A stretch of DNA of 64,000 nucleotides, from positions 1-64,000 of the forward strand of contig JANQQD010000310.1 of the NCBI GenBank assembly GCA_028285185.1, written 5' to 3'. Each line of letters opens with the position of its first letter. Within the stretch, counting starts at the first letter, position 1. A program made the translations under genes and the position numbers. Shown piece by piece: positions 10,074 through 46,860 of the stretch. The DNA comes from Anaerolineae bacterium (GTDB taxonomy: Bacteria; Pseudomonadota; Alphaproteobacteria; DSM-16000; Inquilinaceae). The notes below the pieces were generated by a model. It was given only the letters and a program-made list of their open reading frames with translations. It had not been told where the DNA came from and did no database searches.

Positions 10074-10082
10074 AACGCACAC

Positions 10083-11081: not shown

Positions 11082-11092
11082 CAGTGATTTTC

Positions 11093-11110: not shown

Positions 11111-11289
11111 CAGCAACACATCCGAAATCGAAAGTGGAAATCCGACCGGGTTTTGCGGGGGCGAACCTAAGCCGAAATAAGGCCTACAGACCGTCATTCT
11201 GGCCGTTTTCCCTTCCATAGGTAGGCCACTGGGATACGCTTATAGAGGGTCAGATGTCCCTGATCCCCCTTGTTCCAAGGAGGGATCAT

Positions 11290-20889: not shown

Positions 20890-20892
20890 GGG

Positions 20893-24876: not shown

Positions 24877-24950
24877 CCGACACGTCCGACGTTCAGAGGT
24901 GCCAAGGCGCTGACGGGTGTAAACGACGGCCTGACGCAGTTGGTCCTTGC

Positions 24951-25238
24951 TCAGGCCTTCGGCTTCAAAAAATCGAGGCTCTCCTTCAGGATCAACTTGT
25001 CGAGCTCAAGCTCTGCCACGATCCTCTTGAGCCGCTGGTTTTCTTTTTCCAGCGCTCGCATCTGCGAAAGCTGCGACCGTCCCATACCGCCAAACTTCTT
25101 GCGCCACGTATAGTAGGTCGCATCGCTGATCCCAGCCTTCCGACACGCCTCAGCCACGTCCAGCCCTGATGCCAGATGGACTTCAATCTCTCTAAGCAGA
25201 CGCAACGCGTCCTCGTCCGTGTGACGCTTCCGGGCCAT
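24951..25238 (-). CDS. IS3-family OrfA (HTH, 95 aa)
   Basis: DNA-binding N-terminal part of the transposase. The HTH_8-type domain reads LDVAEACRKAGISDATYYTW followed by RKKFGGMG, with a leucine-zipper-like stretch LEKENQRLKRIVAELELDK and the end KESLDFLKPKA. These words are typical of IS407-group elements. It ends just after the slippery T6 run that links it to orfB. Alone it normally represses transposition. Confidence 0.93.
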   Translation of the reverse strand: MARKRHTDEDALRLLREIEVHLASGLDVAEACRKAGISDATYYTWRKKFGGMGRSQLSQMRALEKENQRLKRIVAELELDKLILKESLDFLKPKA

Positions 25239-25912: not shown

Positions 25913-26545
25913 TCAGAGGCCGCCGTAGAGCAGGTCGGTAGTTAGATACTCGAGACTCTGCGCGTTACGCAGCGCTGCAGCCTGGTTCTGCTTCGCCAAA
26001 GCCTCGAGCGCGGGCACAGCGTAGACCTCCTGTTCGGTGCCCTGCGGAAGCACTCCGACCGTGTGCAGCGCCTCGTGCATAGCGGTCGAGGCCTGGCTAT
26101 CCAAGCCTGTGGCTCCTACCTCGAAGAACTGCGGCGCGAAGAAGATGTCCCGGGGAGCAGCTGGGTGTACGCCCGCGAAGTCGCCGGCATTCCAACCGAA
26201 CTCGGGGCTGTTGGCGACCGGGCACCAGACTCCGCCGAATCCAGAAAAAGTGACGACGCGTTCATAATGCGCTCGGGCCGATGCGATCGCTGTGGGCGTC
26301 GGGGACCCGAGCCAGCGGCTAAACTTTTGCAGCGTTGTCGCGTCTCCTGCGTCAAGCTTCGCGATCGTCGCTGTTGCGTCCTTTCGCGCCTGCTCCATGG
26401 CAGCGTCAACCAGCGCTTTCTCCACGCCCGCACATGCAATCTTGTGGTCATTAACACCCGCTACGGCTGTCGTGATCAAATTGGTCGTCAGTGTGAGCCC
26501 GGCGACCATAAGCAACGCCCTGCATGTGATCTTCTGATTGATCAT
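25913..26545 (-). CDS. Secreted M35-like (aspzincin) metalloprotease (210 aa)
   Basis: Residues 1-29 are a signal peptide (LLMVAGLTLTTNLITTAVAG), so it acts outside the cytoplasm. HEALH (157-161) is an HExxH zinc site; GTEQE (169-173) stands where aspzincins have GTxxD; LAKQNQAAALRNAQSLEYL matches the family's A..NAxxYeyf end. The third zinc ligand would therefore be Glu173 in place of Asp. The ATG at 26545 has GGAG upstream and is preferred to the earlier frame-open start at 26602. It follows the coiled-coil operon by 64 bases on the same strand and is probably its last gene. The protease class is inferred from motifs only. Confidence 0.6.
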   Translation of the reverse strand: MINQKITCRALLMVAGLTLTTNLITTAVAGVNDHKIACAGVEKALVDAAMEQARKDATATIAKLDAGDATTLQKFSRWLGSPTPTAIASARAHYERVVTFSGFGGVWCPVANSPEFGWNAGDFAGVHPAAPRDIFFAPQFFEVGATGLDSQASTAMHEALHTVGVLPQGTEQEVYAVPALEALAKQNQAAALRNAQSLEYLTTDLLYGGL

Positions 26546-26609
26546 TCCAATTCTCCCTTGATCCCTTTGAACTTGTGAATTTCGTCCAGCATGGCTGTTC
26601 ACTTATTCG

Positions 26610-27422
26610 CTACTTAACCGAAGCAAGGATCGCCTCGAGATCGGTAAAAATCGCCGAGATCGTCTGTAACGCCGTGCCTGCGCTCTCCACGGTTCTGTCC
26701 TTGGCCTCGCGCGCCTTGCCGAACATCTCGACGATCTGGGCGATCTTGTTCATCGACCGCTCGATCTTCGTGCGCACGGCGAGGACGCGCTCCTGCGTCC
26801 GCTCGATGTCGACGAGTAGGGACCTGTTCATCTCCGCACCCAATTGTTCCCAGGCTTCCTCGAAATCGAGCTCTGTCAGTTCGTCCAACCGGGCCTCGAG
26901 AACATCTTTGGCGCTGCGTAGCGTCTCCTGCCACGCTTCCGCCTCGCTCTCGAAGGTCGTCGCGTGATTGCTCAGGTCGGTGAGCATTTCAGTACGCGCT
27001 TGGTCGAGGTCGGCGACGCAGTCCTCCAGAGTTTCTTCCAGCAGGGTCTTGAGGCGGTCGTCGATCGTGCTCACGGCCTTCTCGATGAAGGCTTCGGCGC
27101 TGGACTTCGTCTCGTCGGCGATAGCGCCGAGGTCGGGTTTGGTAAGGCGGGTGGTGTATTCCGCAGCATCCTTCGCGATCGCATCGAGGCGTCCTGCGTA
27201 CGCTTGTAGCTTCTCGTTGGCTGCGCGCTGAAGCGAGGTGACGAAGGATTGAGCCAGCTCCGGGCTCTCTGCGCCGCTCTGCTCGATCTGTTCCAGCGCC
27301 GTGCCGACATCTCCAGCTGCGGACTGAAAACGCGCGCTTAGCGATTCGAGACGCATCCGCGCGCGGCGGCGGCGCTGCTCGAGTCGCTGTATTGCATCGT
27401 TCAAGTCGGCTGTTGACGTCAT
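26610..27422 (-). CDS. Coiled-coil protein A of unknown cluster (270 aa)
   Basis: Not recognised. Nearly the whole length is charged heptad-like helix: DLNDAIQRLEQRRRRARMRL at the start, then long Ala/Glu/Thr stretches such as KLQAYAGRLDAIAKDAAEYT, and a more hydrophobic end TALQTISAIFTDLEAILASV. There is no signal peptide, membrane helix or catalytic motif. The start overlaps the stop of protein B by four bases (ATGA), so translation is coupled. It is the last of five small helical proteins in a row; size and helix content resemble apolipoprotein-like or alpha pore-forming subunits, but that is only a comparison of shape. Confidence 0.65.
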   Translation of the reverse strand: MTSTADLNDAIQRLEQRRRRARMRLESLSARFQSAAGDVGTALEQIEQSGAESPELAQSFVTSLQRAANEKLQAYAGRLDAIAKDAAEYTTRLTKPDLGAIADETKSSAEAFIEKAVSTIDDRLKTLLEETLEDCVADLDQARTEMLTDLSNHATTFESEAEAWQETLRSAKDVLEARLDELTELDFEEAWEQLGAEMNRSLLVDIERTQERVLAVRTKIERSMNKIAQIVEMFGKAREAKDRTVESAGTALQTISAIFTDLEAILASVK

Positions 27423-28264
27423 AGTCCGATCCCCACACTTCCTGCCAGCGACTTGAAGCTGTTAAACGCAGCTTCGAGGGGCGTGAAAGCACCTCTAACT
27501 TGCTCAAGCGCTTCCTGCAGCGCTTCGCGCTGTTCGGCACCAGCATCATCCCCGCCGGTCAGTTCGGCCTTAAGCGATTGAAGTTCGGCCCGTACGATCT
27601 CTGCAATTTGCTCTAGCGCCTCCTCGATTGGCGCGCCAATCTTCTCCTCCGCTTCCTCGAAGAGCGTCTCGACAAGCCTGATTACGGCCTTATCGACTGT
27701 CTCCGTCCACACCTCCTGCAGCCTGTCGGCCTGTTCGCGTACGGGGCCAGTGACCTCCTCGTTGATAACAGTCGCAAGTTGGCCCGTGATATCTCCGAGT
27801 GCACTCTTGAAGCTGTCACGCCCGCCCTCGATTGCCTCGCGCAGGCTCAAAAGGAGTTCGTCCGTCCGGTTGCTCAACGTGCCCACGTCCGCGAGGGCGT
27901 CGCCCGAGGCGGCAGTAATCCTGTCGCCCAGGTCGTCCACGGCCCGCTTCGCCTCGTCGAATTCAGTTGTCACTTGCGTTTCAATGTAGGTGAGCACGGC
28001 TCTGAGTTTGGCAATCTCGCCCTCGGCCTCAGTCAATGCAGGGTCGAAAGTCTCGGCCAGGAAGGTGTCCACCTGCGCGTCCACCTGGGCGATCGCCGTT
28101 TCCAACGCGACGAGACCGTCGACGACGCCGTTAAGGCGGCCCGTCAGCTCGTCCAGGGTCTGCTCCATGAAAGCTCGGGTGGCTGCGAGTTCCTCGCTGT
28201 CCTCTTCCAGCGCCTCGCCCAGTGCCATCAGTCGCTCCAGCAGCGCTTCGTCGATCTCTGCCAT
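27419..28264 (-). CDS. Coiled-coil protein B of unknown cluster (281 aa)
   Basis: Not recognised. It is an acidic, helical protein from end to end (LMALGEALEEDSEELAATRA; ETQVTTEFDEAKRAVDDLGD). The C-terminus TPLEAAFNSFKSLAGSVGIG is hydrophobic, and its PLEAAFNSF matches PLEPAFDAFE of protein E and FEPVVDAFEA of protein D, which suggests common descent or a common docking tail. It lies one base after protein C and overlaps protein A by four bases. There is no membrane segment and no known motif. Confidence 0.65.
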   Translation of the reverse strand: MAEIDEALLERLMALGEALEEDSEELAATRAFMEQTLDELTGRLNGVVDGLVALETAIAQVDAQVDTFLAETFDPALTEAEGEIAKLRAVLTYIETQVTTEFDEAKRAVDDLGDRITAASGDALADVGTLSNRTDELLLSLREAIEGGRDSFKSALGDITGQLATVINEEVTGPVREQADRLQEVWTETVDKAVIRLVETLFEEAEEKIGAPIEEALEQIAEIVRAELQSLKAELTGGDDAGAEQREALQEALEQVRGAFTPLEAAFNSFKSLAGSVGIGL

Positions 28265-28265
28265 C

Positions 28266-29114
28266 TTAGAACCCTGCCCGCATGATCTCGAGGGCCCGGC
28301 GCACCGCGCCGACGACGTTCTTGGCCACGACCAGTTGCGGTAGATACCCTGACAGCATGCCCGTTAGCTGCGCCGAAATCTGGGTCATCACGACATCGTC
28401 GACGACTTCTTGCATCGTTCGGGCGATCACGGTCTCGCCAAGCTCGCGTACCTCGTCCTCGAAAAGCGCGCGGCCGGTATGCTCGACCTTGGTCTGCAGC
28501 CGATCGGTCATGTCGGCGACGTGGTCGCGGACCTCGCCGATGCGCTCTTCGGCGTTGCTCCGAAGCTTGGTCAGCACCTCCTCGAACTCGCCCTCGATGA
28601 TCGAAACAACTTCTCCCGGCAATTCCTCGATCTGGCTCCGCAAGTCGGAGAGCGTCTCGGCGAGCGCCTCTTCGATCGCCTCCTCGAGCTCCTCGGTGAT
28701 GAAATCGCGGAGCGCTTCGATTTTCTTCTCAGTGTCGTCTCCATAGCTGAGAAGCGCGTCGCGCGTCGCCTCTACCGCGTCGTCCGCATTCTGACGTAGC
28801 TGGAAGAGAGCCTGCTGAAGTTCCCGGGCGGACGACGTTGCGGCGTCTCGGGCCCCGTCGGTCATGTCGTCGACAAGCACGAGTGCTCTTAGCCGGTCCG
28901 TCCGGGACTTGGTCACGCCGACGACGGCATCCCCGGATTCCGAGGCGGTTCGGCCGACGTCCCGCGCCCCGTGGCTCAAGCGCCCTGCAATGGCGTCGAG
29001 CGTTTGTTTGCGGTCAGCTAGCGCAGCGCCGATGGTCTCTATTTCAATCTTCACCGCCCCTGCCGAGCGTTGCACCTCGGCGAGCGCGCGCCGGAGCTCT
29101 TCATTGGTCGCCAT
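28266..29114 (-). CDS. Coiled-coil protein C of unknown cluster (282 aa)
   Basis: Not recognised. The N-terminus MATNEELRRALAEVQR followed by VKIEIETI and DRK aligns with that of protein D (MATVEKFRHALAEGRR, VKREAAAI, KRK), a clear sign of paralogy. The middle is a long acidic coiled coil (ITEELEEAIEEALAETLSD). Near the C-terminus lies a Gly- and hydrophobic-rich stretch (ISAQLTGMLSGYLPQLVVAK) that is not a classical membrane helix but might insert. The start codon shares one base with the stop of protein D. Confidence 0.65.
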   Translation of the reverse strand: MATNEELRRALAEVQRSAGAVKIEIETIGAALADRKQTLDAIAGRLSHGARDVGRTASESGDAVVGVTKSRTDRLRALVLVDDMTDGARDAATSSARELQQALFQLRQNADDAVEATRDALLSYGDDTEKKIEALRDFITEELEEAIEEALAETLSDLRSQIEELPGEVVSIIEGEFEEVLTKLRSNAEERIGEVRDHVADMTDRLQTKVEHTGRALFEDEVRELGETVIARTMQEVVDDVVMTQISAQLTGMLSGYLPQLVVAKNVVGAVRRALEIMRAGF

Positions 29115-29617
29115 TAGGTCAGGGCCTCAAAGGCATCGACAACGGGCTCGAAGGCAACGAGAGCGCAAACGTAGCGATGAAGAGCGAACTGTACATCCCG
29201 TAGTTCCTCTTCCTGCTTTTCAAGAGACCCCTCGTCTGCGCCTTCGAAATCGCCTTTAATGATCGTGCTAATCTTGACGGAAAGCTCCCAAATCTTATCA
29301 CAAATTAGATCTAAAAACACCGTGCCTGATGCAGCGAAGATCTCATACATTTCGGCGTCGCGCAGCATATCAACCCTAGATTCTGCTGTAAGCTCATCCA
29401 TGGGCAATTCTAGCTTTTTTTTGAGCTCATCAATTTCGGCCTGAAGCACGTCGATTTCGTTTTCGATGTTGTGCCTATTATTGATGATCTTTTCTTCGGT
29501 CGCCGCTGTCTTCCTCTTCATTAGCTCTAACTCGATCGCCGCCGCCTCCCTTTTCACTACCTCCAACAAGCGACGCCCCTCAGCTAGCGCATGCCGGAAT
29601 TTCTCAACGGTGGCCAT
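29114..29617 (-). CDS. Coiled-coil protein D of unknown cluster (167 aa)
   Basis: Not recognised. This is the shortest of the five helical proteins and has visibly lower GC than its neighbours. The ATG at 29617 shares one base with the stop of protein E; the TTG one codon earlier is less likely. After the N-terminal part shared with protein C come LQAEIDELKKKLELPMDEL (strong coiled coil), a hydrophobic helix GTVFLDLICDKIWELSVKIS, and the C-terminal tail FEPVVDAFEALT shared with E and B. It looks like a shortened member of the same family as C. Confidence 0.62.
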   Translation of the reverse strand: MATVEKFRHALAEGRRLLEVVKREAAAIELELMKRKTAATEEKIINNRHNIENEIDVLQAEIDELKKKLELPMDELTAESRVDMLRDAEMYEIFAASGTVFLDLICDKIWELSVKISTIIKGDFEGADEGSLEKQEEELRDVQFALHRYVCALVAFEPVVDAFEALT

Positions 29618-30363
29618 CAATTTAGGATCTCAAAGGCATCAAAAGCGGGCTCAAGCGGCTGGACGATATTATTGATCTCCTCCAATAGGTCCGCCACAGC
29701 CGAGAGCCGGTCGATGATTTCGGCGGCAGCACTGTCGACCAGCGTCTCGATGTGGGTCAGCACCGAGTTAATTCTCGCTGCCAACACGCGCAATTTCTCG
29801 GCGAACACTTCGCCAACTAGCTCGCGTACGAAGCCGCTGAGATCCGGCATTTGCTTGCTCATGAGCTCTTGCAGTCGCTCGTGACCTTCGCGCGCACTGA
29901 CAGAGGCCTCTGTGGCCTCCTCGAGGACTCCACTAAAACGGTCGTGTACCGTGCCTAGCGTCTCGACGATCTGGCCAGTGGTCTCGGTTGCAGCAGTCGC
30001 AATCGTCTCGGTCGCAGAGTCGGCAGCTTCGGTGTACTCGCCGAGCGCGTCGCCTACAGCGCCTTCGACCTCGTCGGCAGCTGTCTCGTCCCAAGCAGTG
30101 TCGAACGCGGCGGGAGGTAGGGCTCCCTCGACTTCCGTAAGCGCCGCATCCAGCGTGGCGAAACTGGCCGCTACATAAGTCTCTGCGCGCTCCTCGGGAT
30201 CGGTGTCGGAAATCAGAGCAGCTACGCGGGTAAGCCGGGCGCCCAGACCTTCGACGACCTCGACAATCTCTTCCGCAGCGTTGAGAGCGGATTCCATCCC
30301 GTCAAGGCGTGCCTCTCCGTCGGCTAGCGCTCGGGCGATCTCGGCGGCGAGGCGGTCATCCAT
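29617..30363 (-). CDS. Coiled-coil protein E of unknown cluster (248 aa)
   Basis: Not recognised. It is an acidic helical protein, rich in Ala, Thr and Glu in the middle (EYTEAADSATETIATAATET). It has two hydrophobic amphipathic segments near the end (VRELVGEVFAEKLRVLAARI; IIDRLSAVADLLEEINNIV) and the tail PLEPAFDAFEILN shared with D and B. The start overlaps the end of the 563-aa gene by eight bases. It is the first of the five small helical proteins in transcription order. Confidence 0.62.
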   Translation of the reverse strand: MDDRLAAEIARALADGEARLDGMESALNAAEEIVEVVEGLGARLTRVAALISDTDPEERAETYVAASFATLDAALTEVEGALPPAAFDTAWDETAADEVEGAVGDALGEYTEAADSATETIATAATETTGQIVETLGTVHDRFSGVLEEATEASVSAREGHERLQELMSKQMPDLSGFVRELVGEVFAEKLRVLAARINSVLTHIETLVDSAAAEIIDRLSAVADLLEEINNIVQPLEPAFDAFEILN

Positions 30364-32047
30364 TTTGAACTCCTCCCTCTAACTCGTCCTGATGTCTCGG
30401 CCCCGTTACGCCCGTCGGGTCAGTCGAGACCCATTTCCTCCAGCTTTTTAGTTCGGCGCTAAGCTGCATCGTGTCTGAAGGCAGCATCCGTGCAAGTGCC
30501 TCTAAGAATAGCCCAACTTCGGCTTGGGTGATCTCCGTGGCCTTGCTCTCGCCGGGGTCAGCGGACTTTGCGCCTTCGGCTATGGGCTTCAGATGCGATA
30601 CTAGCCGACTTCCATTGACTAACCCCTCCAACGCCCGGGCGTCGGCAGGTTGGAAGCTGTGTGTCTGCGTGCGTGGGTCGTCGGGGTCGCGCACGGTGTC
30701 CAGGGCTGTTGCTGCCATCTCGGTGTGCACGACGACATCCTTGCTCTTGGCGAGTTCCCGCCCCAGCCAAATCATTTCGCCAGGCCAGAATTGCGTTGGC
30801 TCCAATTGGTATCGTGGCTGGCCCGTGGCACCGCGCGGCTGCTCGGCAGGGAAGCCGGGAAAGCTCGTAAGATCCAGAAGATCGACGATGTCGCGTGACT
30901 CGTCGGTGCCCGACGCATTCGGTGCTACAAGCGACACCCTGGACAGGAGGTAATCGTCGCTGGAATGCGGGAACATCAGGTTGGCGAGGTGCAGACGATA
31001 GGCTTTCAACGTGGTCTCGGGCCGATCGGGGCGAACGCGGTTGTGGTGCGAGAGTGCGACCGGCATGCCAAGCGGGTCCAGGAGTTGGCAGCGAAGCCGA
31101 CCCCAAGCGTCGATCTCAATGCGCAGCGTATAGGAAGTGGTGGCTTCCGGTGGTGCCTCTGCCGCACTGGCATACCCCTCCTCTTCGCCATGCATGGGAC
31201 TCTCCTGGCGCGTGATGGTGATGGTTGTGCAGTTCGCTTCCGTACCGCTGGTGTCACGATAGATGATCAACCGCCCGTCCTGACGCAGCGTTTCGCTCGT
31301 GTTTTCGCGGAAGCGGGCGTGATCTACGACGGGCAGCGCAGCGAACTCCGGTGCGATGCATGAAGGCTGACGCCCGGGGGCAAGAAGCCTGACGCTCAGC
31401 GGACGACGCAGAGCACGATCTGCTTCAGCTTCACGCGCGAGCCAAGTGCCGGCGCTGCGCTGGAGCATCGGGTCGGTCGAAAATTCATCCCGCGGCACCG
31501 GGACATGCAATGCGGGCGCCTCCAGCGGGTTCGGATCGAAGCGCAGGTAGGTTTGCCCGGGCCAGCGCAGCCTGCGCAGGCCGTAGACCAGCCAGAAAGG
31601 CGGCATCCGAGGCTCCGACGTCTTCTGCTCGCCTCCAGCCTCCTTCGGCGGAGGAAGGAGGAATAGCGTTCGGACACCGGTCGAAGTTTCCAACTGCGCC
31701 GCGATGCGTGCCCGCGCCTCCGCGAGTAGCGCGATCAAGAAGCGGCAGCGATCCGGATCGTCGCGCGGGATCTCGTCCCAGTCGGGATATACGCGCAGCA
31801 TCCGCCCTTGTGCGTGCCCGCCGAGTGTCCCGGCTCCGCCACCATTGATTGCATAGGCCAGTGCGTTTGCGTCGTCGCCAGCGACCCAAGCCTCTGCCTC
31901 ATGGTGACGGATTCCGCCGGTCATCGCCGCATCCGAAAACTGTCGGCGCACCGCTACGCAAGCGATCTCGGAAGTCTTTGCGCCCGGAGCGTGCACATGC
32001 ATCTCTCGCGTGCCGATCGCTATCCGGAAGAGTTGTTCATCCGACAT
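30356..32047 (-). CDS. Unrecognised cytoplasmic protein F of unknown cluster (563 aa)
   Basis: Not recognised. No signal, membrane helix or nucleotide-binding motif. The N-terminal 140 residues seem to be an alpha/beta domain (RIAIGTREMHVHAP; GRMLRVYPDWDEIP; RTLFLLPPP). The middle is beta-rich (TTSYTLRIEIDAWGRLRCQL) with Pro-rich links, and the last 90 residues are helical. The gene starts four bases after the 871-aa gene, behind GGGAGG, and overlaps protein E. Its place between the membrane protein and the five helical proteins suggests an adaptor or assembly role, as inference only. Confidence 0.6.
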   Translation of the reverse strand: MSDEQLFRIAIGTREMHVHAPGAKTSEIACVAVRRQFSDAAMTGGIRHHEAEAWVAGDDANALAYAINGGGAGTLGGHAQGRMLRVYPDWDEIPRDDPDRCRFLIALLAEARARIAAQLETSTGVRTLFLLPPPKEAGGEQKTSEPRMPPFWLVYGLRRLRWPGQTYLRFDPNPLEAPALHVPVPRDEFSTDPMLQRSAGTWLAREAEADRALRRPLSVRLLAPGRQPSCIAPEFAALPVVDHARFRENTSETLRQDGRLIIYRDTSGTEANCTTITITRQESPMHGEEEGYASAAEAPPEATTSYTLRIEIDAWGRLRCQLLDPLGMPVALSHHNRVRPDRPETTLKAYRLHLANLMFPHSSDDYLLSRVSLVAPNASGTDESRDIVDLLDLTSFPGFPAEQPRGATGQPRYQLEPTQFWPGEMIWLGRELAKSKDVVVHTEMAATALDTVRDPDDPRTQTHSFQPADARALEGLVNGSRLVSHLKPIAEGAKSADPGESKATEITQAEVGLFLEALARMLPSDTMQLSAELKSWRKWVSTDPTGVTGPRHQDELEGGVQNG

Positions 32048-32051
32048 TTTG

Positions 32052-34667
32052 CTATCGCCCTCCCGCCAAGTCGCCCAATGCCCGTGCGAGCGAGGTCTTC
32101 AAACGTCCGCGCGCCTCTTTGACCGCGTCGTCTGCCTCTTTCTGCTTATCCGCCTGCTTGCGCATTTCATCGGCCACCAGTTTGGCATCTGCCTTCAAGT
32201 GCTGCTCGATGATTGAGAAGCGAGCGATCGCGTCCTCGCCCGGGCGTCCAAGGCTGCGTGCGATTTGCTCAGCAAAGCGCTCGAGAAAGGCCTTGCGTTC
32301 GACCTCGAGGTGACGGCGCCACTCGCCGAATACTTCTAGCAGGACGCCATCCACGGCGTTGGACGCCCCCTGTTCAATCGTCGCGATCTTGTCTAGCTTC
32401 ATGTCTCGGCGCGTGAGCACAATAGTCTTAAAGGCAAGCCAAATGTTCAGCGCGAGTAGGAGCAACAGTAACGACGTCAACAGCCAGTTCGTGGTGACTA
32501 GTACGGTCACTGAGAATGCGAGAAAGGCCCACGCTTGGGCCAGGGCGGACATTTCGCCGAGCATTTGGCGGCCTGTGGCGGCGCGCTGCTCATTGTCCGT
32601 TTCGGTGCAATCGGCGATCTTGTCCCGCAGCCGGGTGTATTCCACCTCCGCGAGCCAGCGCAAGCGGTTGCGCTGCTCCGCTGCCGTTTCCCAAGTCGTA
32701 TCCGTCATGTCGAGGCCAGACGGATCTTTGGGCAATAGCCAGCCCCAAAGGTTTTGCCAGGCTGGCGAGACACGGATCAGCGGATTGCCGCTTTGAACTG
32801 ATGCAATGATCGCGTCGCGAACAATTCTTTGGTCTTGTCCCGACGCGATTTCGCCCAACACGCTATTGTCAAGCGTGTCGAGTACTTTCTCAAGGACTCC
32901 ACCTTTTCGGTTCTCTTGATCATCTTGCGCCCCGTTCTCATTCCCCGGAATATGCCACGCCGCGTAGTGCGAAGGACATCCGGGATCGTCTGAGCGCACA
33001 ACTTCTTCGCGTGCAACGTAGCGATTGAACCCGTCGCTCAGTGCAGCTCCCGTGAAGCCGGCCAACGCAACGATACCGACGCCGACAGCGAGGATGCGCG
33101 TGAATTTTCGAGACTGCCCTTTGATCTGCTTCGGGTTCCAAGCGGTCGGCACACGTTGTTCGCCCGGCCACTTCATTCGTTCCTCGAGCCTGCGCCGAAC
33201 CTCCACCGGATGTCCGACAAGCGGCTTGAAGCTGGTGTGTACAGCATCGATTTCCGGCAGTCGGGGATTAGCGCTGGCATCGCCAAGCTCGGACTTCACG
33301 ATATCGGTGTAGCGAGGGCGCAGCCGGCGTAGCCAGTATAGGCGGAGGAGATGGGCTTGCCCGGCGGTCAGACCATCGAGAACGGCGAGAGTGCGCTGCA
33401 CGATCTCGGATCGCGCCCCATCGGCGAGGCGCAAAATGACCGATGGATCAGTCCTTTTCTCGCGAGCATCGGTGAAAGCCCGCGTCTCTTCATGGATAAG
33501 GTCCGTCTGTGCTACCGCCAACCTCGACAGGAGCGCCGGCGCCGTGTTGCGTAGTTTTAGACGGGCCTCCGCATGGGTTGTCAGAAGCTGAACGAAGCGC
33601 TCGGTTTCTTGGTCGGCTTGGGCAACGAGCTGCTGAATTGTGCGGGTTGGGTCGGCTGGGCGGACGTTGGCAAGGCTGTCGCTTTGTCCTTGAACGAGCG
33701 CCTTGTAGGCTTGGATCGGGTCGCCCTTGGGCGACGTGCTGGCTTCGGGCGTGACCGGCCGGAGGGTTGTTGCCCGATCAAGGTCATAACGAATCTGCGC
33801 AGTCTCTGCAGCCGACGCACGGCTGAGACGCACGGTGAGGGGTGCAGGCGGATCAACCCGCTGCCAGGCAACGCCTCCTGGCGCGCCGGGAGCGAGCACA
33901 GGCGCGAGGTCCGGGTGCAATGCGGCAGGGTCCGCTCCTCGTCCCGTCGCGACAACGGTCACGGTCTTGTCTGGTGCGTCGAGCCATTCGGTGACCAATT
34001 CCACAAGCTTCCGGCGAAGAGCTTTTGAAGGGTCACTCAGGGTGCCTTTTTCTGGTTTTGAGGGCCGTGTCTCGACCCAGCACCAAGGGGCGTCGAGCGT
34101 CAACGCGAGATGCGCTCCGGCCTCAGTCACAGGCGAACGTACAGAGCTCCGCCGGATTGCGCTGGCCTTCAAGGGCATCGGGGCTTCAGGCAATAGCTCG
34201 GCTGGCCAAGTCGGATGACGATCACCATCCCCGGATGTTGAGAGGTCAACCCACGAGATCGTTTGCGAATCGAAACCCTGGATGCCGTTCTGAAGGGCGC
34301 GGAGATGCGGACCAACAGTCCTGCCTGGCTCACAATGGGCGAGCAGGACAACTGGAGAGCGGCTCAAGGCTTTGGCCAGAAGGCTGTCTTCTGCGGGTCG
34401 CCTCGACGCGTCGCGAACTACCAAGACAAATACCGCGGGGGGAGGAGCGTCCTTTGACGTAGTCTCGATATCACTTCGGCCGGCGGCGCCGGAAAACGGG
34501 TTGACCGAGATCCCGTGTGACACGACTTGGCTGGATGATCCTAAACGGATCAAATCGAGTGCGCGTCCCGGGTCCTCACAGGTCAGCGCCAGCGCTCGCA
34601 AGAGTTCGGTTTTCGGCACCTCACCGAGAGAGCAGCCGAGTGCACCAACCTGGATCCAGTTCACCAT
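32052..34667 (-). CDS. Unrecognised membrane protein G of unknown cluster (871 aa)
   Basis: Not recognised. Residues 1-500 are soluble; 78-115 (VFVLVVRDASRR, SPVVLLAHCEPG) look like strands of an alpha/beta domain, and 340-460 are helical. Hydrophobic helices lie at about 524-544 (ILAVGVGIVALAGFTGAAL) and 712-750, the latter long enough for a hairpin of two. The segment between them (545-711) holds Cys564 and Cys687, which could pair if it is periplasmic. From 751 on comes a highly charged coiled coil (EEFAEQ-like, LKADAKLVADEMRKQADKQK). The start has GGAGGGGAGCGGA upstream. It probably anchors the complex in the inner membrane. Confidence 0.6.
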   Translation of the reverse strand: MVNWIQVGALGCSLGEVPKTELLRALALTCEDPGRALDLIRLGSSSQVVSHGISVNPFSGAAGRSDIETTSKDAPPPAVFVLVVRDASRRPAEDSLLAKALSRSPVVLLAHCEPGRTVGPHLRALQNGIQGFDSQTISWVDLSTSGDGDRHPTWPAELLPEAPMPLKASAIRRSSVRSPVTEAGAHLALTLDAPWCWVETRPSKPEKGTLSDPSKALRRKLVELVTEWLDAPDKTVTVVATGRGADPAALHPDLAPVLAPGAPGGVAWQRVDPPAPLTVRLSRASAAETAQIRYDLDRATTLRPVTPEASTSPKGDPIQAYKALVQGQSDSLANVRPADPTRTIQQLVAQADQETERFVQLLTTHAEARLKLRNTAPALLSRLAVAQTDLIHEETRAFTDAREKRTDPSVILRLADGARSEIVQRTLAVLDGLTAGQAHLLRLYWLRRLRPRYTDIVKSELGDASANPRLPEIDAVHTSFKPLVGHPVEVRRRLEERMKWPGEQRVPTAWNPKQIKGQSRKFTRILAVGVGIVALAGFTGAALSDGFNRYVAREEVVRSDDPGCPSHYAAWHIPGNENGAQDDQENRKGGVLEKVLDTLDNSVLGEIASGQDQRIVRDAIIASVQSGNPLIRVSPAWQNLWGWLLPKDPSGLDMTDTTWETAAEQRNRLRWLAEVEYTRLRDKIADCTETDNEQRAATGRQMLGEMSALAQAWAFLAFSVTVLVTTNWLLTSLLLLLLALNIWLAFKTIVLTRRDMKLDKIATIEQGASNAVDGVLLEVFGEWRRHLEVERKAFLERFAEQIARSLGRPGEDAIARFSIIEQHLKADAKLVADEMRKQADKQKEADDAVKEARGRLKTSLARALGDLAGGR

Positions 34668-34684
34668 TCCGCTCCCCTCCGTTC

Positions 34685-36727
34685 TCAGCCCGCCTTAGCC
34701 GCGCGAGCAAGCTGAATGGCCGCGATCAGGCGCAGTGCTGTAGTGTGCAGCCTCGTCTCCGCTTTGCCTTCGTCTGGGGGCAGACCTGGACGTCTAGTGA
34801 AGGGGTCCAGGGCCTCAACGGCTCGTTCGAGATCATCCTCTTGAGCAGCAAGGGTCTTATCGATCTCGCGTCGGCTCAATCCGTCCAGCGCTGAGTCAAT
34901 CTCACCTGATAGCCGATCGACGATGGTGCGAAGCGCCTTGATCTCTGGCAGCGGTGAGCCAGGACGCACGGCACCTTCCCCAGCACCGAGCAGCGCAGCA
35001 AGCCTTGGGTAAGCCCGCCTGACATCTGACACGTCAAGAACATGGCGCATTACATCCGTCAGAGTGAGGTTGCGCGACGGTCGGTTCACGTCCGCTTTAA
35101 AGAAGATCTCCAGCGTGTCGAGATCCGAATAGGCCGAGTGCAGCCACTCTGAATTCGGATCGTGAGCGTTCCAATCGGCTTGCAGTGCCTCGGCAAGACT
35201 TGCAAGAGGGGGCGTAAACTCCCGCGCAATCCACCGGGCGATAGCTGATCGGGAGAGACCCGCGACGATAAGGGATTGTTCGGGCGCCGAGACCTTGTGT
35301 GCCTCGTCTGGCGGCGATTCCCAGAAAAAGCCGACAAGACGCTCGAAGATTGTCTCTCCAGAAAGGGAGGCGCCCTCAAGATCCGCAATCATTCCGCTGG
35401 CATCATTGCGCGGGTGAAGCAGCGGGAGCAGCTCGATCCCGCCGCGCGCCCGGACAACAGGTCCCGTGAAGTCGTCGCTCCAGAGCGCCTCGATTGCAGC
35501 GAGCAACGGTGCCGAAAGCGCCAAAGGCGGACCGATCCCGTTCAGCACGGCCTGCATCGAAGGTGCAAGCCAAACTCCGAATAAGTCCGCAGTGGTCAGT
35601 TCGCGCCCGGGCGCCTGGTTAAAGCTGCTCTCGGCCAGGCGATTCGCTGTTTCGGAGTTCAACCAGCGTAGTGCCCTGCTGTGGACGTCGGTGTCTATTG
35701 GCGTAGGTGCCCCGACCTCGGCATCTCGGGAAATTGGCGTCAGTCCCTGGAGTGTCGCTTCGAAGAGAACAGTTCGCGGGCTTGCGGAAGCAAGCTCTGC
35801 ACCGAGATCCGCCTTGGCGTCGGTCATTGGCGAGACCGATGTGAACAACGCTGTTTTGTCTAGGCCAAAGAATGCCACGAGATCCCTAGGGAGGAGATCC
35901 AGAGAGAGCTCGATCTCATACTGCTGGGCAGCTTCGGGCGTTGAGAACTCGGTGGGCGGCAGAGCGGCCGGCATTTCGGAGACGCGACGAATCCGGATCT
36001 CCGTCGCGTCCATCTTAATGACGGGCTCTTGCGGGCTAGTGTCGGGTGCGCGCCGCATCTCGTCTCGTGCCAACACGACCACCGCCACGCAGTCACCCAG
36101 TGCGAGATCGCTATCGGGAGTGCGCTTCTCATCCGTCACCGTCACGGAGTAGCGCTTGCCCGACCTGCGCCCCGCAGATAACCGGACTTCCCTCGTGCCA
36201 GATCTCCGCTTGGCAATCTCGAAGGGCCAGACTGCGATGGCTTCGTCAGCAAGACGAGCCATGCGCGTCATCCCGAGCAACGTGCAACCTTCTTGCGCCG
36301 CCTGCGCGTCCGGCGATGAGGTCACTTTGAGGCAGGTAGCAGAGTGCTCTGGCACGTATAGCACTACGGCTGCGCTCTGCGCGTCACGCGGTGGGCGAGA
36401 CTGACGCAATACGAACCGCGCCACCTGCCGCCCGTACTGGCGAAAATCCACGATGACATCTCTTTGCGCCTGTAGTGCGGTGGGCAGTCGACCCGTCAGC
36501 CAGATGCTCTTGCTAGATTTCTCGCCGGCTGCGGGGGGGGGCTCCGGCCAAGCAACGGCTACTGAGAGCGTCACCTCTCCCGCGCCAGAGGCCGAGCGAG
36601 CAGACAGCGACGCCAAGACTCGCCTGTCCGAACTGCCTGTGGGCTCAGGCCCTTCAGGCTTTTCCGGCGAGTGTTCCGTGACCAGAACCAGGTCGCCTGT
36701 CTCTTGCGTCCAAAAAAGAGTTGTCAT
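34685..36727 (-). CDS. Unrecognised protein H, first gene of unknown operon (680 aa)
   Basis: Not recognised. The first half is beta-rich (TLFWTQETGDLVLVTEH; DVIVDFRQYGRQVARFVLRQ; GDCVAVVVLARDEMRR) and the second half helical, with a C-terminal predicted coiled coil (LSGEIDSALDGLSRREIDKT). A G8 run lies in the gene near 36533-36540 and would be prone to slippage. No membrane helix is seen. It opens the operon read toward 25913 and is divergent from the 395-aa gene, with 90 bases between the starts. Confidence 0.6.
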   Translation of the reverse strand: MTTLFWTQETGDLVLVTEHSPEKPEGPEPTGSSDRRVLASLSARSASGAGEVTLSVAVAWPEPPPAAGEKSSKSIWLTGRLPTALQAQRDVIVDFRQYGRQVARFVLRQSRPPRDAQSAAVVLYVPEHSATCLKVTSSPDAQAAQEGCTLLGMTRMARLADEAIAVWPFEIAKRRSGTREVRLSAGRRSGKRYSVTVTDEKRTPDSDLALGDCVAVVVLARDEMRRAPDTSPQEPVIKMDATEIRIRRVSEMPAALPPTEFSTPEAAQQYEIELSLDLLPRDLVAFFGLDKTALFTSVSPMTDAKADLGAELASASPRTVLFEATLQGLTPISRDAEVGAPTPIDTDVHSRALRWLNSETANRLAESSFNQAPGRELTTADLFGVWLAPSMQAVLNGIGPPLALSAPLLAAIEALWSDDFTGPVVRARGGIELLPLLHPRNDASGMIADLEGASLSGETIFERLVGFFWESPPDEAHKVSAPEQSLIVAGLSRSAIARWIAREFTPPLASLAEALQADWNAHDPNSEWLHSAYSDLDTLEIFFKADVNRPSRNLTLTDVMRHVLDVSDVRRAYPRLAALLGAGEGAVRPGSPLPEIKALRTIVDRLSGEIDSALDGLSRREIDKTLAAQEDDLERAVEALDPFTRRPGLPPDEGKAETRLHTTALRLIAAIQLARAAKAG

Positions 36728-36817
36728 CGAGCGACTGTGAAGTTTGATTAACTAACGGGATCATTGCAAAAACTTTCCCTGCCAGAAACAACAAACTCAC
36801 TTCTTTCGTGAGGGCCT
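36728..36817. promoter_or_regulatory. Divergent promoter region of the unknown cluster
   Basis: 90 AT-rich bases between the starts of protein H (minus) and protein I (plus). It must hold promoters for both; no clear operator repeat is seen. GAGG at the right end is the ribosome binding site of protein I. Confidence 0.5.
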
Positions 36818-38005
36818 ATGGATATCGCTCTTGTTCCGTGCACGCAGACCAGGGAAAGCGTGCTCCGCGGCTTGGGTCTGCATCTACTAGGCCTGACGCA
36901 CAGTGAGTCGATCGACGTCGATCTCGGTGGAGAGGGTTGGGCAGGCCGCGGGACGGTCGACCTGCATGGCCCTCTGCGCGATGCGGCCCTTCTAGCAGCA
37001 TATGACCGCTTGCATAGCCTGACCGAGACACCTCACTCCGAGCACTTTGTTCAACGGCCGATGCATCCTGATCGTTTGGACCGGCTCTACGATCCACCTG
37101 AGAAGCAATCCGAGTACCGAAATGGCTTGTCAGAGGATATGGCGCTTTCAGGTCAAGTGCGCGTTGCAGGGCTTGCAATGTCGGAAGGACCGCCAAGAAG
37201 CGGTCGTGGCTTGCGCCCGTTGATGATCAAGGGGAACGTTCACCTTACCGAACTCGACATAAGCCTGCCTTCGGCATTCTCGCGTGCTCACGACCTCGCT
37301 GCGGCGAGCGACGTGACCCAAGCGCGGCAGGCCGCAGCACGAGAATTACTTGGCCGAGATGCGATCGTTATCTGGATTGGAACCGATCATCCCGCTGACC
37401 ACGCGAACGCGGCCTCTCTAGATTCTTTGCTAGACATCATGACCACGGAGGCCGGGTTGGCCGGTCGTGCCGCGCAGGATAATGGCGCAGACTGGTTAGC
37501 GAATACGGTAGTGCGATTGAAGAGAATAGTCATTTCAGTTGGCGGCGTCGGACAGACGGTGGCTGGGACGAAGAGACCGCTGGCAGAATACGATGCTGAT
37601 ACCCTATTCCAAGTCGGGGCACTTCCCCTGCTTAGGCGTCATGCGTCGATTATTAGGGGATGTGCGCGTCTCGCAGGGAACATTCGCCTCGTCTCCGGGC
37701 ACGACCGGGAAGTTCCGCTGATCTGTGTGCCGATGGATCTTGCGGGAGACATTCCTTCGGTCGGATGTGTCAACCGGGACCCGCTAGACCCGGCGCTGGA
37801 AAGGCTCAGGTCGCGGGATTTCTATATCCAGCGCGGGCGTCCGCTCCCCGAGACCAGGCGCGCCATTGTGGACGCCGTACGCCCCGCTTGGCGCCCCTTC
37901 AACGTTGTAGGTCCGCTGCTCGCTGCCAGCGGCGATTTCGCCATGTTCACGGCCATGGAACTCTGTGAAACTGACTGGTCGAGTTTCGAGGATGCGCGTC
38001 TCTGA
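36818..38005 (+). CDS. Unrecognised protein I of unknown cluster (395 aa)
   Basis: Not recognised. A soluble alpha/beta protein with strands such as DAIVIWIGTDHP (about 181-192), RIVISVGGVGQTVAG and EVPLICVPMDLAGD. It has no signal peptide and no P-loop. Conserved-looking His and Asp clusters (THSESIDVDLGGEGW; GTDHPADHANA) could be functional, but no family is evident. The ATG follows GAGGGCCT. It is transcribed away from the main operon and ends seven bases from the convergent stop of the 915-aa membrane protein, so it is framed by the cluster on both sides. Confidence 0.6.
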   Translation: MDIALVPCTQTRESVLRGLGLHLLGLTHSESIDVDLGGEGWAGRGTVDLHGPLRDAALLAAYDRLHSLTETPHSEHFVQRPMHPDRLDRLYDPPEKQSEYRNGLSEDMALSGQVRVAGLAMSEGPPRSGRGLRPLMIKGNVHLTELDISLPSAFSRAHDLAAASDVTQARQAAARELLGRDAIVIWIGTDHPADHANAASLDSLLDIMTTEAGLAGRAAQDNGADWLANTVVRLKRIVISVGGVGQTVAGTKRPLAEYDADTLFQVGALPLLRRHASIIRGCARLAGNIRLVSGHDREVPLICVPMDLAGDIPSVGCVNRDPLDPALERLRSRDFYIQRGRPLPETRRAIVDAVRPAWRPFNVVGPLLAASGDFAMFTAMELCETDWSSFEDARL

Positions 38006-38012
38006 CATTGCA

Positions 38013-40760
38013 TCACGCAGGCTCACCTTCTAGGTCTTCAGGGTTTGCCTTGACGCCGTGTCTTTCATCTGCCGCTAGGTACTGCAGATACACCTGTGCC
38101 GCTGGTCGGAGTTCGTATATGTCTTCGGTCGTCTTGCGCACTAAATTGCCTAGCAAAGCAAGTATTCGCCGGGCGCGGGCCCGGCGTGGCGATCCAGTAA
38201 TCCGCGAAATGTTGATGGTAACCGGGTAATCCGCACTGCCCGTGAGCTTGAAGTGCTGGACGATAGTGCTGAAGATCGTTGGATCTTCTCGCGAAATCCC
38301 ACTCAAAGCGCTTTCAATCACCTGCTCGTCGAATCGAACGCCTTCATGAGCCTCGACGCCGATTAAGGTACTTCGACGGAGGATTACAACGCAGATCGCC
38401 ATAAGCACGATCATGATGTCAATCATTACCGCGATGGCAAAGGCATAGAACTCGTATATGTAGGTGATACCACCGGACCATGATGTCTCTCGCTCCACAG
38501 ACGAGCTTTCCGCTTCGTTTATGCCCAAGACCCACATGAACGGGCTGGCCAGCCACGCTATTACATCTGTCGCTACACCCGACAAGTCGGAGAGAGCGTT
38601 GCCCATGTCTCGCTGCAACATAAGGATCATCCGTTGCCAAGACCTGCGCACTGTCGCACGCCCGTCCAAGTTCGAGATCGCTTGGCTGAGGTCAGCTAAA
38701 GTGCCTGTATACGTACCAGAGAGCATTTCCCTCGCCCCGACGGGACGCGTAACACGCAGTTCACTGAGAGCCAACTCTGCGTTTCGGCGTAGCGTCAAAA
38801 CAGGTTCTGGGTCGGCAAGCTCAGGGTTATCCAATTCGACCTCGGCGACCCTTATCCGAGCGATATGCAGCCTCCCGATGGCTTGGTATGTTGTGGAAGA
38901 TGGAGCGAAACGTTGACAAATAAGGCCTCGAATTGGCTCCGGGTTTTCCAGGTCGACATTGGCCGCCTCTTGCAGGTTTCGAAGAACACTGTCGAGTTCT
39001 TGGCATGCAAGTCGAGCGATAAGAAGACAATCGCCAGCTTGGGGTGGCTCGACACTTTGCAATGGCGGATCAGGTGGCCTATCCATATTGCTGCACGTCA
39101 ACGCGCCGAGAGAGCCACTGAGGCGACTCTCCACGACACTTAGAAGTGCTTCGTCCACAGCAACCGCAAACGTTTCAATCCCTTCGAGACCCGCTCCAGA
39201 AAGGCCTGCCATCGCATCGTCACCAAATTCCGGGACGGTGGCAGCGTAGTTCTCAAGCCTCGTCATTTCGGCAAGCAAAGCTTCCGTGAGTGCGCGCCGT
39301 CCTTGATCAGTTCGACGTATGTTGTCATCTCGCAGCATCTGCTGCGCTCTCTCAATGTCTGACCTACGCGTGGCTATTGTTGCCTCCGCTTCCCGTCGAT
39401 CACGAAGGTATCCAATCGCTTGTCTTCTAAGTTGGTCGAAATAGGACACACCACGCCCTGGGATCGAAGTGGCGCGTGAGCAATTCGGTGGACCGCCTTC
39501 CAAGGCATCTACGATCCCGAAAAGGGTGGCTTGAAGGTTCGGATATGTGATCTTATCGAGCTGATCAGCAGTCAGTCCAGAAAGGCTCTCGACTGTTGTT
39601 GAATCATCCTCAATAAATGTAATGAGCGCATCGCGGATTAAGCGGGCTTGTTCGCGGTCATTTTCGTCCTCCAGTCGTAGTGCGAAACTAGTAAGTCCAG
39701 CTTCTTCACGTTCAAGAATTGTCCTGAGAATTCCGGCGATCGCGGCAACCTCAAGCCTGGCCACTGAAGTCCGAAAGGCCTCGCGCGTGCACAAACCGCC
39801 ACCACTATCTAAGTCTTCTGGATCCTCCGGGTTTGCATCGAAAAAATCGAAGACTAGGCCGTGCTCCCAATTTGTCTGACCATTCACAATCGCAAGACGC
39901 TTTTCAGTCAGCAAAAGTGACCTTTCCGCTGCACGAATCTCTGTTTGCCAGCGGCCTATATTTTCTTGAATTGCATTGCGCTCCTCGTCTGGCAACGCGT
40001 CCCCGTCTTCTGTGTCGAGCACTCTACGCAACCGTTGGCGAGTATTGAAAAGCGGCCCGCCCAATTGTGCGACGAGGTTCAGGCTGGCTTCTTGGGCGCC
40101 CGCTCCAAGTTCTCCCGAAGCTGGCGACCAACTGGCGCTACGTGCTTCGATCTCTCGAAGAATCGCTTGTTGGATTCTTGCTCGCCCAACCTCGAAGAGC
40201 TCCGGTACATCGTTCAGAGTGGTTCGCGCGATCTCTTCATCCGTCTCCAGCGTATGATGGAAGGTCGCATATGAGAAAGCTATCGAAAACGCGAGAAAAG
40301 GAGCAAGTAGCACACCGACTACGACTACGCCGACCACCTGTAGTCCTCTAACGGACACCGCCGTAGCTATGCGGCGCCAACGCGGTAAACTAAGCGGCAC
40401 GTGCGACGCCGTAAAAAGGCGTACCAACTGCCCGCCGAAGAACAGCGAAAGCACGACTGCTATGATCTGGATCCCGAGTGTCGTACCGGCTGCAATCACT
40501 CCCCGCGTGATTGGATCGAACAAGCCAGCGCGATCCAAGGCCTGATTGGACCCGGCGATTAGTAACTCATAGAGCGCTAACGCTGTTGTTGCGAACGACA
40601 CGAACGTGAGAGTCAAGATCGCATAGAATAACCAGGTGGCGAGGCTTTGGCGATCAAAGACCCGCATGAGCCGTTCGCGCATCGGACGGCCACGCCGGAT
40701 AACCTCTGCGTTTTCGTCGGACTGGAGGTCAATCCAGGCGGAAAATCGAGATCTAGCCAC
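38013..40760 (-). CDS. Unrecognised four-helix membrane protein J with large exported domain (915 aa)
   Basis: Not recognised. Hydrophobic helices lie at about 41-68 (WLFYAILTLTFVSFATTALA), 88-113, 138-165 and 770-794 (FAIAVMIDIMIVLMAICVVI). Positive residues before the first (RRGRPMRERLMR) and after the last (ILRR, SPRRARARR) put both ends in the cytoplasm, so the roughly 600 residues between helices 3 and 4 would be periplasmic. That domain is largely helical and holds six Cys, with almost none elsewhere. The cytoplasmic tail of about 119 residues looks like a small alpha/beta or winged-helix domain. The frame is open to TTG 40781, but GTG at 40760 has GAGG just upstream. It is probably the membrane core of the cluster. 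Confidence 0.6.
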   Translation of the reverse strand: MARSRFSAWIDLQSDENAEVIRRGRPMRERLMRVFDRQSLATWLFYAILTLTFVSFATTALALYELLIAGSNQALDRAGLFDPITRGVIAAGTTLGIQIIAVVLSLFFGGQLVRLFTASHVPLSLPRWRRIATAVSVRGLQVVGVVVVGVLLAPFLAFSIAFSYATFHHTLETDEEIARTTLNDVPELFEVGRARIQQAILREIEARSASWSPASGELGAGAQEASLNLVAQLGGPLFNTRQRLRRVLDTEDGDALPDEERNAIQENIGRWQTEIRAAERSLLLTEKRLAIVNGQTNWEHGLVFDFFDANPEDPEDLDSGGGLCTREAFRTSVARLEVAAIAGILRTILEREEAGLTSFALRLEDENDREQARLIRDALITFIEDDSTTVESLSGLTADQLDKITYPNLQATLFGIVDALEGGPPNCSRATSIPGRGVSYFDQLRRQAIGYLRDRREAEATIATRRSDIERAQQMLRDDNIRRTDQGRRALTEALLAEMTRLENYAATVPEFGDDAMAGLSGAGLEGIETFAVAVDEALLSVVESRLSGSLGALTCSNMDRPPDPPLQSVEPPQAGDCLLIARLACQELDSVLRNLQEAANVDLENPEPIRGLICQRFAPSSTTYQAIGRLHIARIRVAEVELDNPELADPEPVLTLRRNAELALSELRVTRPVGAREMLSGTYTGTLADLSQAISNLDGRATVRRSWQRMILMLQRDMGNALSDLSGVATDVIAWLASPFMWVLGINEAESSSVERETSWSGGITYIYEFYAFAIAVMIDIMIVLMAICVVILRRSTLIGVEAHEGVRFDEQVIESALSGISREDPTIFSTIVQHFKLTGSADYPVTINISRITGSPRRARARRILALLGNLVRKTTEDIYELRPAAQVYLQYLAADERHGVKANPEDLEGEPA

Positions 40761-40941
40761 TATTGCCTCTGTACTGTTCAATCAAGCGAATGGCATTTTT
40801 TGTAGAATGACTTGGCAGGGGTTGTGCAAACACTGGCACCCTCGTCTTTCATCATCTAGCGCAGGCTAGGCATCTGGGGTCCAGACTGCTGTCCTTCTCG
40901 CCGCTAGGCAACAAAATTTCATCTTGAAGGATCGGGTACCC

Positions 40942-41082
40942 ATGGGAAAGGCTACCATCGTCGGCGTCGATCTCGCAAAGGACGTGCTCCAAGTTCAAGG
41001 CGCTGCTGCGGACCGACTGACGCTGTTCCAGCAGAGGCTGTCGCGACTGCGGCTCGCGCGGTTCGGTGCCAGTCGCAATTGA
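40942..41082 (+). pseudogene. IS110-family transposase N-terminal remnant
   Basis: 46 codons from ATG 40942: MGKATIVGVDLAKDVLQVQG, the usual IS110 DEDD-transposase start with the first catalytic Asp, followed by LFQQRLSRLRLARF and a premature stop. The remaining 300 or so codons are gone. It marks the right side of the unknown cluster. Confidence 0.75.
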
Positions 41083-45245: not shown

Positions 45246-45270
45246 GACGTGACCTCTGGATCAGTAAGGT

Positions 45271-46842: not shown

Positions 46843-46860
46843 CTTCTTGACTCCCTTTGC

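What the first reader, a model, noticed from the sequence alone, without database searches (positions are those of the whole stretch)
25913..40781. Unrecognised multi-gene membrane and coiled-coil system
Ten genes lie together with no recognised function except one protease-like product. Seen: one minus-strand operon H-G-F-E-D-C-B-A with gaps of 17 bases or less or short overlaps, then an exported metalloprotease-like gene; a divergent gene I; and a convergent gene J encoding a 915-aa protein with four predicted membrane helices. G has three hydrophobic helices, and A to E are almost pure coiled coil. Established knowledge: genes beside restriction systems on islands are often defence systems. 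Inference: J and G form an inner-membrane complex with A-E as a helical assembly (filament, sheath or pore) and H, F and I as sensors or adaptors. No known system such as Zorya, BREX, DISARM, Lamassu or type VI secretion matches by motif.
Basis: partly seen in the sequence, partly recalled or inferred. Interest (0 to 1): 0.88.

Follow-up and report, generated by a model that had tools for sequence, protein, structure and literature searches.

The report
Orphan helical-membrane operon in defence island
Next to two known anti-virus systems on a mobile stretch of a bacterial chromosome lies a compact block of genes with no recognisable relatives: two membrane proteins and a set of helical proteins that partly arose by gene duplication. 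It may be an undescribed cell-envelope machine, perhaps a defence, but nothing yet shows what it does.

Summary
An eight-gene minus-strand operon (H-G-F-E-D-C-B-A) is followed by an exported M35/aspzincin-type protease gene, with I divergent and J convergent. The genes are real by codon structure. F, G, H, I and J match nothing in Pfam, NCBIfam, PADLOC, PHROGs or PDB. I found no relative in sampled genomes, plasmids, phages or close-relative pattern scans, although the same searches found relatives of the neighbouring protease.

The block lies on a tRNA-Ser/recombinase island beside a complete Olokun pair (OloA/OloB), a type III restriction-modification pair and a PDC-M19B gene, so 'defence-island neighbour' is well supported. 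Function is not.

New facts: A-E are acidic amphipathic helical proteins with periodicity 3.6-3.7, not classical heptads (3.5). B and E are paralogues; B-C, D-C (heads) and D-E (tails) are linked, and a 100-nt repeat brackets gene D, so part of the set grew by tandem duplication. J has about 590 residues predicted periplasmic, with six cysteines. No obvious catalytic motif except the protease's, whose third zinc ligand is replaced.

Best guess: an envelope-anchored scaffold or sensor machine, possibly anti-phage (about 0.3). Whether J, I and the protease belong is unproven. Conserved co-occurrence could not be tested.

The parts
38013..40781 (-). J: 922-aa (915 aa from GTG) inner-membrane protein; three N-terminal hydrophobic segments, ~590-aa predicted periplasmic helical region with 6 Cys, fourth membrane helix, ~110-aa cytoplasmic tail
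   Evidence: hydropathy and Cys positions; topology by the positive-inside rule is inference; no relatives; GC3 0.55, lower than most of the operon
36818..38005 (+). I: 395-aa soluble orphan protein, divergent from H, convergent with J
   Evidence: no family or plasmid match
34685..36727 (-). H: 680-aa soluble orphan protein, first gene of the operon
   Evidence: no match
32052..34667 (-). G: 871-aa protein; N-terminal 520 aa soluble, hydrophobic segments 521-545 and 706-753, charged helical C-terminal tail
   Evidence: no relative in any genome sample, plasmids or phages (the hit is antisense noise)
30356..32047 (-). F: 563-aa soluble orphan protein
   Evidence: no match; actin-fold idea tested and not supported
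29617..30363 (-). E: 248-aa acidic all-helical protein, paralogue of B
   Evidence: B-E 27% identity over 269 aa, E 1e-6; 0 of 300 pattern-preserving shuffles reach the score
29114..29620 (-). D: 168-aa helical protein (ATG at 29617); head like C, tail like E
   Evidence: C-D heads 0/1000 shuffles; D-E tails 5/1000; flanked by a 100-nt repeat
28266..29114 (-). C: 282-aa helical protein
   Evidence: periodicity 3.73; B-C similarity z 3.9
27419..28264 (-). B: 281-aa helical protein, strongly acidic (net -40)
26610..27422 (-). A: 270-aa helical protein; relationship to B-E not established
   Evidence: periodicity 3.71; pairwise scores not beyond pattern-preserving shuffles
25913..26602 (-). Exported M35/aspzincin-like metallopeptidase (probable ATG start at 26545 with signal peptide)
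   Evidence: Pfam Aspzincin_M35 1.2e-10; relatives in Ruegeria and Polaromonas plasmids; HExxH kept, third-ligand column D/E to Q
29553..29652 (-). Copy 1 of 100-nt direct repeat (E tail / D head junction)
   Evidence: 70% identical to copy 2, spacing 503; background maximum 51% over 90 nt in 2878 pairs
29050..29149 (-). Copy 2 of 100-nt direct repeat (D tail / C head junction)

Best explanation
A horizontally acquired, lineage-restricted envelope machine carried on a defence island. Shown: the operon, the membrane segments, the all-helical nature and non-heptad periodicity of A-E, partial tandem duplication among B-E, the island context, and the lack of recognisable relatives. Inferred: G is the membrane anchor, with a large cytosolic head and a helical cytosolic tail. 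The helical proteins (B-E as duplicated and diversified subunits, A less certain) bundle on G's tail as a hetero-oligomeric rod or scaffold. H and F are soluble partners of the head. J, if it belongs, is a separate inner-membrane sensor whose periplasmic helical domain reads an envelope event and signals inward through its short cytosolic tail. The most likely purpose, from the neighbours alone, is defence against phage or other mobile DNA at the cell envelope, acting by conformational or membrane effects rather than by a recognisable nuclease or NTPase.
For: Defence neighbours on the same island: complete OloA/OloB, type III MTase and restriction-type helicase, PDC-M19B. Island signs: tRNA-Ser at 8175-8264 followed by tyrosine recombinases, GC drop from 0.68 to 0.50-0.63, absent from the 16 other genomes held of the order. 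Tight operon with coding signature. Membrane segments in G and J, and six cysteines in the predicted periplasmic part of J. Helical periodicity 3.60-3.73 in A-E with working synthetic controls. Paralogy and tandem duplication.
Against: No protein has a known defence domain or NTP-binding motif. The right-hand neighbour genes are metabolic (peptide ABC transporter, hydantoinase), so island cargo is not only defence. No second example exists to show conserved linkage with defence genes. Structure models are too poor to use (pLDDT 37 and 44). An IS3 element lies between the block and the restriction genes.
Confidence: 0.3

Rival explanations
1. A non-defence envelope or intracellular structure (surface apparatus, transport scaffold, membrane-shaping or granule-coating assembly) that travels on the same island. 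A-E act as amphipathic helical coat or scaffold proteins recruited by G.
For: Helical periodicity 3.6-3.7 and weak Pfam hits of the helical proteins to apolipoprotein, LEA, phasin and perilipin models (all below curated cut-offs); metabolic cargo next door; no defence domain in any protein.
Against: A-E are strongly acidic (net -15 to -40), which does not favour direct binding to anionic membranes. The weak hits are what any amphipathic helix gives. Left-hand neighbours are defence genes.
Confidence: 0.3
2. The ten- or eleven-gene unit is composite. The functional unit is the operon H-A only; J, I and the protease are independent neighbours brought together on the island.
For: J and I have their own transcription units. 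J GC3 is 0.55 against 0.65-0.78 for H, G, F and A-C. M35 relatives are stand-alone in the same genome and genus and have other neighbours elsewhere. The protease probably starts 64 nt after A.
Against: All are orphans of similar unusualness packed without other genes between them, and I/J and I/H spacing is tight. Gene D, inside the operon, also has low GC3 (0.58).
Confidence: 0.4
3. A secreted or contact-dependent weapon: multi-component helical pore-forming proteins with an exported M35 peptidase.
For: Several helical proteins of 170-280 aa encoded in a row; exported peptidase at the 3' end. The closest plasmid relatives of that peptidase sit beside large orphan genes, at least two of which look exported (signal peptides).
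Against: A-E lack signal peptides and hydrophobic hairpins. No immunity gene or known pore-forming family is recognisable. The protease has lost the acidic third zinc ligand seen in its relatives.
Confidence: 0.12
4. Artefact: overpredicted ORFs, decayed genes or contamination of a fragmented assembly.
For: Assembly contamination estimate 8.5%, 402 contigs; several long overlapping antisense ORFs in the region.
Against: Codon-position GC, overlapping stop/start junctions, uninterrupted frames of 563-922 aa, and embedding in a 76-kb contig whose high-GC left flank carries the tRNA-Ser next to the recombinases.
Confidence: 0.02

Closest known systems
Zorya (ZorAB)
   Same: Inner-membrane complex with a long helical cytoplasmic tail, periplasmic part and defence-island setting (PMC11890865). 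Helical proteins B, C and E give weak hits to the helical regions of ZorA models.
   Different: No MotA/ExbB/TolQ or MotB domain, no ZorC/D/E counterpart. Hits cover only ZorA's helical region and are far below NCBIfam cut-offs. The helical parts here are separate small proteins.
DO-GTPase/GAP1 and vWA-MoxR conflict systems (PMC7159879)
   Same: Multi-gene operons with membrane-linked components and orphan all-helical partners.
   Different: No GTPase, AAA+, vWA, GAP1 or GASH domain detected here.
Aspzincin/M35 metallopeptidases
   Same: Exported ~200-aa M35 protein, 31-34% identical to Ruegeria and Polaromonas plasmid proteins.
   Different: Third zinc-ligand column carries Q instead of D/E, so activity is uncertain.
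Apolipoprotein-type amphipathic helical proteins (Pfam PF01442)
   Same: Long acidic amphipathic helices with periodicity near 11/3 rather than 7/2.
   Different: Scores (34 and 25 bits) are far below the curated cut-off of 90; this is a resemblance of composition and pattern, not homology.

Membership tests
Zorya | ZorA MotA/ExbB/TolQ membrane domain and ZorB MotB-like peptidoglycan-binding protein | tested here: not met
   No such domain in any protein in Pfam, NCBIfam or PADLOC; only the ZorA helical region is hit
Zorya | ZorC/D/E effector module | tested here: not met
   No PADLOC hit for F, G, H, I, J
BREX, DISARM, Lamassu, Druantia and other PADLOC systems | Core proteins recognised by PADLOC profiles | tested here: not met
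   F, G, H, I, J: none; A was not run against PADLOC; helical-only weak hits for B, C, D, E
Type VI secretion or phage tail-like systems | Sheath, tube, baseplate or membrane-complex proteins | tested here: not met
   No Pfam match; PHROGs gave nothing above noise for F, G, H, I, J and the protease
DO-GTPase/GAP1 conflict systems | TRAFAC GTPase with Walker A plus GAP1 protein | tested here: not met
   No Walker A in any protein; no GAP1 or GASH Pfam hit at E up to 10 for F-J
Actin/Hsp70 (ASKHA) fold, protein F | Profile similarity to MreB, DnaK or FtsA | tested here: not met
   hhalign probability at most 0.5%, while single FtsA and DnaK sequences reach 95.7% and 97.7% against MreB
M35/aspzincin peptidase (protease gene) | Family profile match | tested here: met
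   PF14521 1.2e-10, above cut-off
M35/aspzincin peptidase (protease gene) | HExxH plus acidic third zinc ligand | tested here: inconclusive
   HEALH present; ligand column is Q where relatives have D, E, D; acidic neighbours on both sides
Classical heptad coiled coils (A-E) | Hydrophobic periodicity 3.5 | tested here: not met
   Peaks 3.60-3.73; synthetic heptad control gives 3.500
A defence system | Protection against phage or mobile DNA | not testable with these tools
   Needs an experiment
A defence system | Conserved co-occurrence with defence genes in several genomes | tested here: inconclusive
   Only one locus found; beside Olokun and type III RM there

The most novel reading that the evidence does not exclude
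A new class of envelope-spanning defence machine: a membrane anchor (G) with soluble head partners (H, F) carrying a rod or scaffold of tandemly duplicated, diversified amphipathic-helix subunits (A-E), triggered by a large periplasmic sensor (J), and working without any recognisable nuclease or NTPase.
Probability: 0.18. Interest if true: 0.85.

Novelty: categorically new. Interest (0 to 1): 0.5.

Why it matters
If the block is one working system it would be a 15-kb bacterial machine with no sequence relation to any described family, placed beside Olokun and a restriction system. It would also show how a helical scaffold diversifies by tandem duplication that keeps subunit ends and changes bodies. 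Its rarity means conventional co-occurrence mining for defence systems would have missed it. The label 'categorically new' is by sequence only; a fold-level relation to a known kind is not excluded.

Tried and rejected
(1) F as an actin/Hsp70-fold protein: suggested by eye (IGTREMHVHAPG..., AWVAGDDANALAYA, RVYPDWDEI) and by the order of predicted strands and helices. Rejected as unsupported by profile comparison with working controls.
(2) J relatives at E up to 0.1 in 34 genomes: the hits inspected were TRAP-type transporters and antisense frames; noise.
(3) The G hit in G928: antisense frame with seven stops over a metal ABC-transporter locus; noise.
(4) ZorA, LeoBC, LmuB, JetC and apolipoprotein hits of the small helical proteins: amphipathic-helix pattern, not homology.
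(5) Using the M35 protease to find related operons: relatives exist, but none had A-E- or F-J-like neighbours.
(6) AlphaFold without usable alignments: F pLDDT 37, B pLDDT 44; too poor for a fold search, which was therefore not run.
(7) An attachment-site repeat of the tRNA-Ser 3' end: no second copy in the window.
(8) DUF4407-like layout of J (three N-terminal helices, long helical domain, one C-terminal helix), recalled from memory: Pfam gives no hit even at E 10.
Full report
CHECK OF THE OBSERVATION. H-G-F-E-D-C-B-A run on the minus strand with gaps of 17, 4 and 1 nt and overlaps of 8, 4, 1 and 4 nt. A protease gene follows; I is divergent from H; J converges on I. Codon-position GC (GC2 0.30-0.52, GC3 0.55-0.78) and stop/start overlaps show real genes. 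The protease probably starts at the ATG at 26545 (64 nt after A), because the signal peptide follows that codon directly.

HOW UNRECOGNISED IT IS. F, G, H, I and J have no match in Pfam, NCBIfam, PADLOC or PHROGs; the few listed hits are weak and below cut-offs. PDB sequence searches gave nothing meaningful. Pfam queries with separate soluble and membrane pieces also gave nothing useful. Relatives were sought in samples of whole genomes. G was sought in 61, 385, 297 and 78, H in 398, J in 385 and 17, F in 17, and a B/E profile in 116. These sets overlap. No true match was found outside the window's own genome. tblastn of G, J, H, F, I and B against plasmids and of G, J, H and F against phages found nothing. 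The same tool with the neighbouring protease found six relatives down to 23% identity, so the method works. Pattern scans of 84,980 species genomes and of viral contigs reach only close relatives and were empty too.

SETTING. The block sits on an island: tRNA-Ser at 8175-8264, tyrosine recombinases from 8349, and GC falling from about 0.68 to 0.50-0.63. PADLOC recognises OloA (14405-16126, 8e-80) and OloB (16123-17835, 1.5e-161), a type III methyltransferase (20893-23034, 1e-270) with its restriction-type helicase (18295-20889), and PDC-M19B (23373-24044, 3e-23). An IS3 element (24136-25238) separates these from the block. To the right are a peptide ABC transporter and a hydantoinase operon. 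The island therefore carries both defence and metabolic cargo, and the block lies between them. The 16 other genomes held from the order lack G, F and J.

ANATOMY. J: hydrophobic segments at 46-77, 91-126, 137-175 and 772-811, with six of seven cysteines in the 180-770 region. With the positive-inside rule this region is periplasmic (inference). G: about 520 soluble residues, hydrophobic segments 521-545 and 706-753, then a charged helical tail. No Walker A motif was found in any of the eleven proteins, and the only metal-protease motif is the HExxH of the M35 protein. A-E are strongly acidic (net -15 to -40), poor in proline and free of membrane helices. Their hydrophobic periodicity peaks at 3.60-3.73. 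Synthetic heptad, hendecad and pentadecad controls of the same composition peak at 3.500, 3.667 and 3.750. So A-E are not classical heptad coiled coils, and their hits to ZorA, LeoBC, LmuB and apolipoprotein models follow from this pattern.

ORIGIN OF THE HELICAL SET. B and E are paralogues (27% over 269 aa, E 1e-6; 0 of 300 shuffles that keep the hydrophobic pattern reach the score). B-C is probable (0 of 300, z 3.9). C and D share heads (0 of 1000); D and E share tails (5 of 1000). At DNA level a 100-nt direct repeat, 70% identical and 503 nt apart, covers the E-tail/D-head and D-tail/C-head junctions; the best of 2878 background pairs reached 51% over 90 nt. Gene D is thus bracketed by copies of the same junction, the mark of tandem duplication or unequal exchange. 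Ends are kept while bodies diverge, which fits, but does not prove, subunits that dock through their ends. A could not be tied to the set.

THE PROTEASE. It belongs to the M35/aspzincin family. Its closest plasmid relatives, in Ruegeria and Polaromonas, sit beside other large orphan genes (3311, 1899 and 612 aa), of which the 3311-aa and 612-aa proteins carry apparent signal peptides. Paralogues in the window's genome and genus stand alone. The acidic third zinc-ligand column is Q here. It may be a passenger or an altered enzyme.

MECHANISM. With no catalytic domain found, the best-supported picture is structural. G is an anchor, A-E a helical hetero-oligomer on it, H and F soluble partners, and J a possible envelope sensor. 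A defence role rests only on neighbours. I give it about 0.3, about the same as a non-defence envelope or intracellular structure. Separately, I put 0.4 on the view that J, I and the protease are not part of the operon's system; this can be true together with either reading, so the confidences do not sum to one. J's GC3 (0.55) is lower than that of H, G, F and A-C, although D inside the operon is also low (0.58).

VERDICT.

Noticed in passing
window 14405-17835 (+): Complete Olokun pair, OloA (PADLOC 8e-80) and OloB (1.5e-161).
   Followed up: partly
window 18295-24044 (-): Type III methyltransferase and restriction-type helicase with an upstream PDC-M19B gene (candidate defence family).
   Followed up: partly
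window 8175-13372: tRNA-Ser followed by recombinase genes: a DUF6538/phage-integrase protein (8349-10073), unrecognised ORFs 10083-11054 and 11254-12387, and a second tyrosine recombinase 12380-13372. No second copy of the tRNA 3' end was found in the window.
   Followed up: partly
window 40940-41080 (+): Short reading frame MGKATIVGVDLAKDVLQVQG... that looks by eye like the start of an IS110-type transposase; Pfam does not confirm it.
   Followed up: partly
window 25913-26545 (-): M35 protease keeps HEALH, but the third zinc-ligand column is Q where three relatives have D, E, D.
   Followed up: partly
L063 408-18597 (Ruegeria sp. THAF33 plasmid): M35 relative downstream of two giant orphan proteins (3311 aa with a possible TAT signal, and 1899 aa) and three small orphan genes.
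   Followed up: partly
L064 15957-18540 (Polaromonas sp. JS666 plasmid): M35 relative directly downstream of a 612-aa orphan protein with an apparent signal peptide, on a plasmid with a SIR2-family gene close by.
   Followed up: partly
window 29050-29149 and 29553-29652: 100-nt direct repeat, 70% identical, that brackets gene D at both gene junctions.
   Followed up: yes
window 41690-49553 (-): Peptide ABC transporter, S-Me-THD-like and hydantoinase genes: metabolic cargo beside the block.
   Followed up: no
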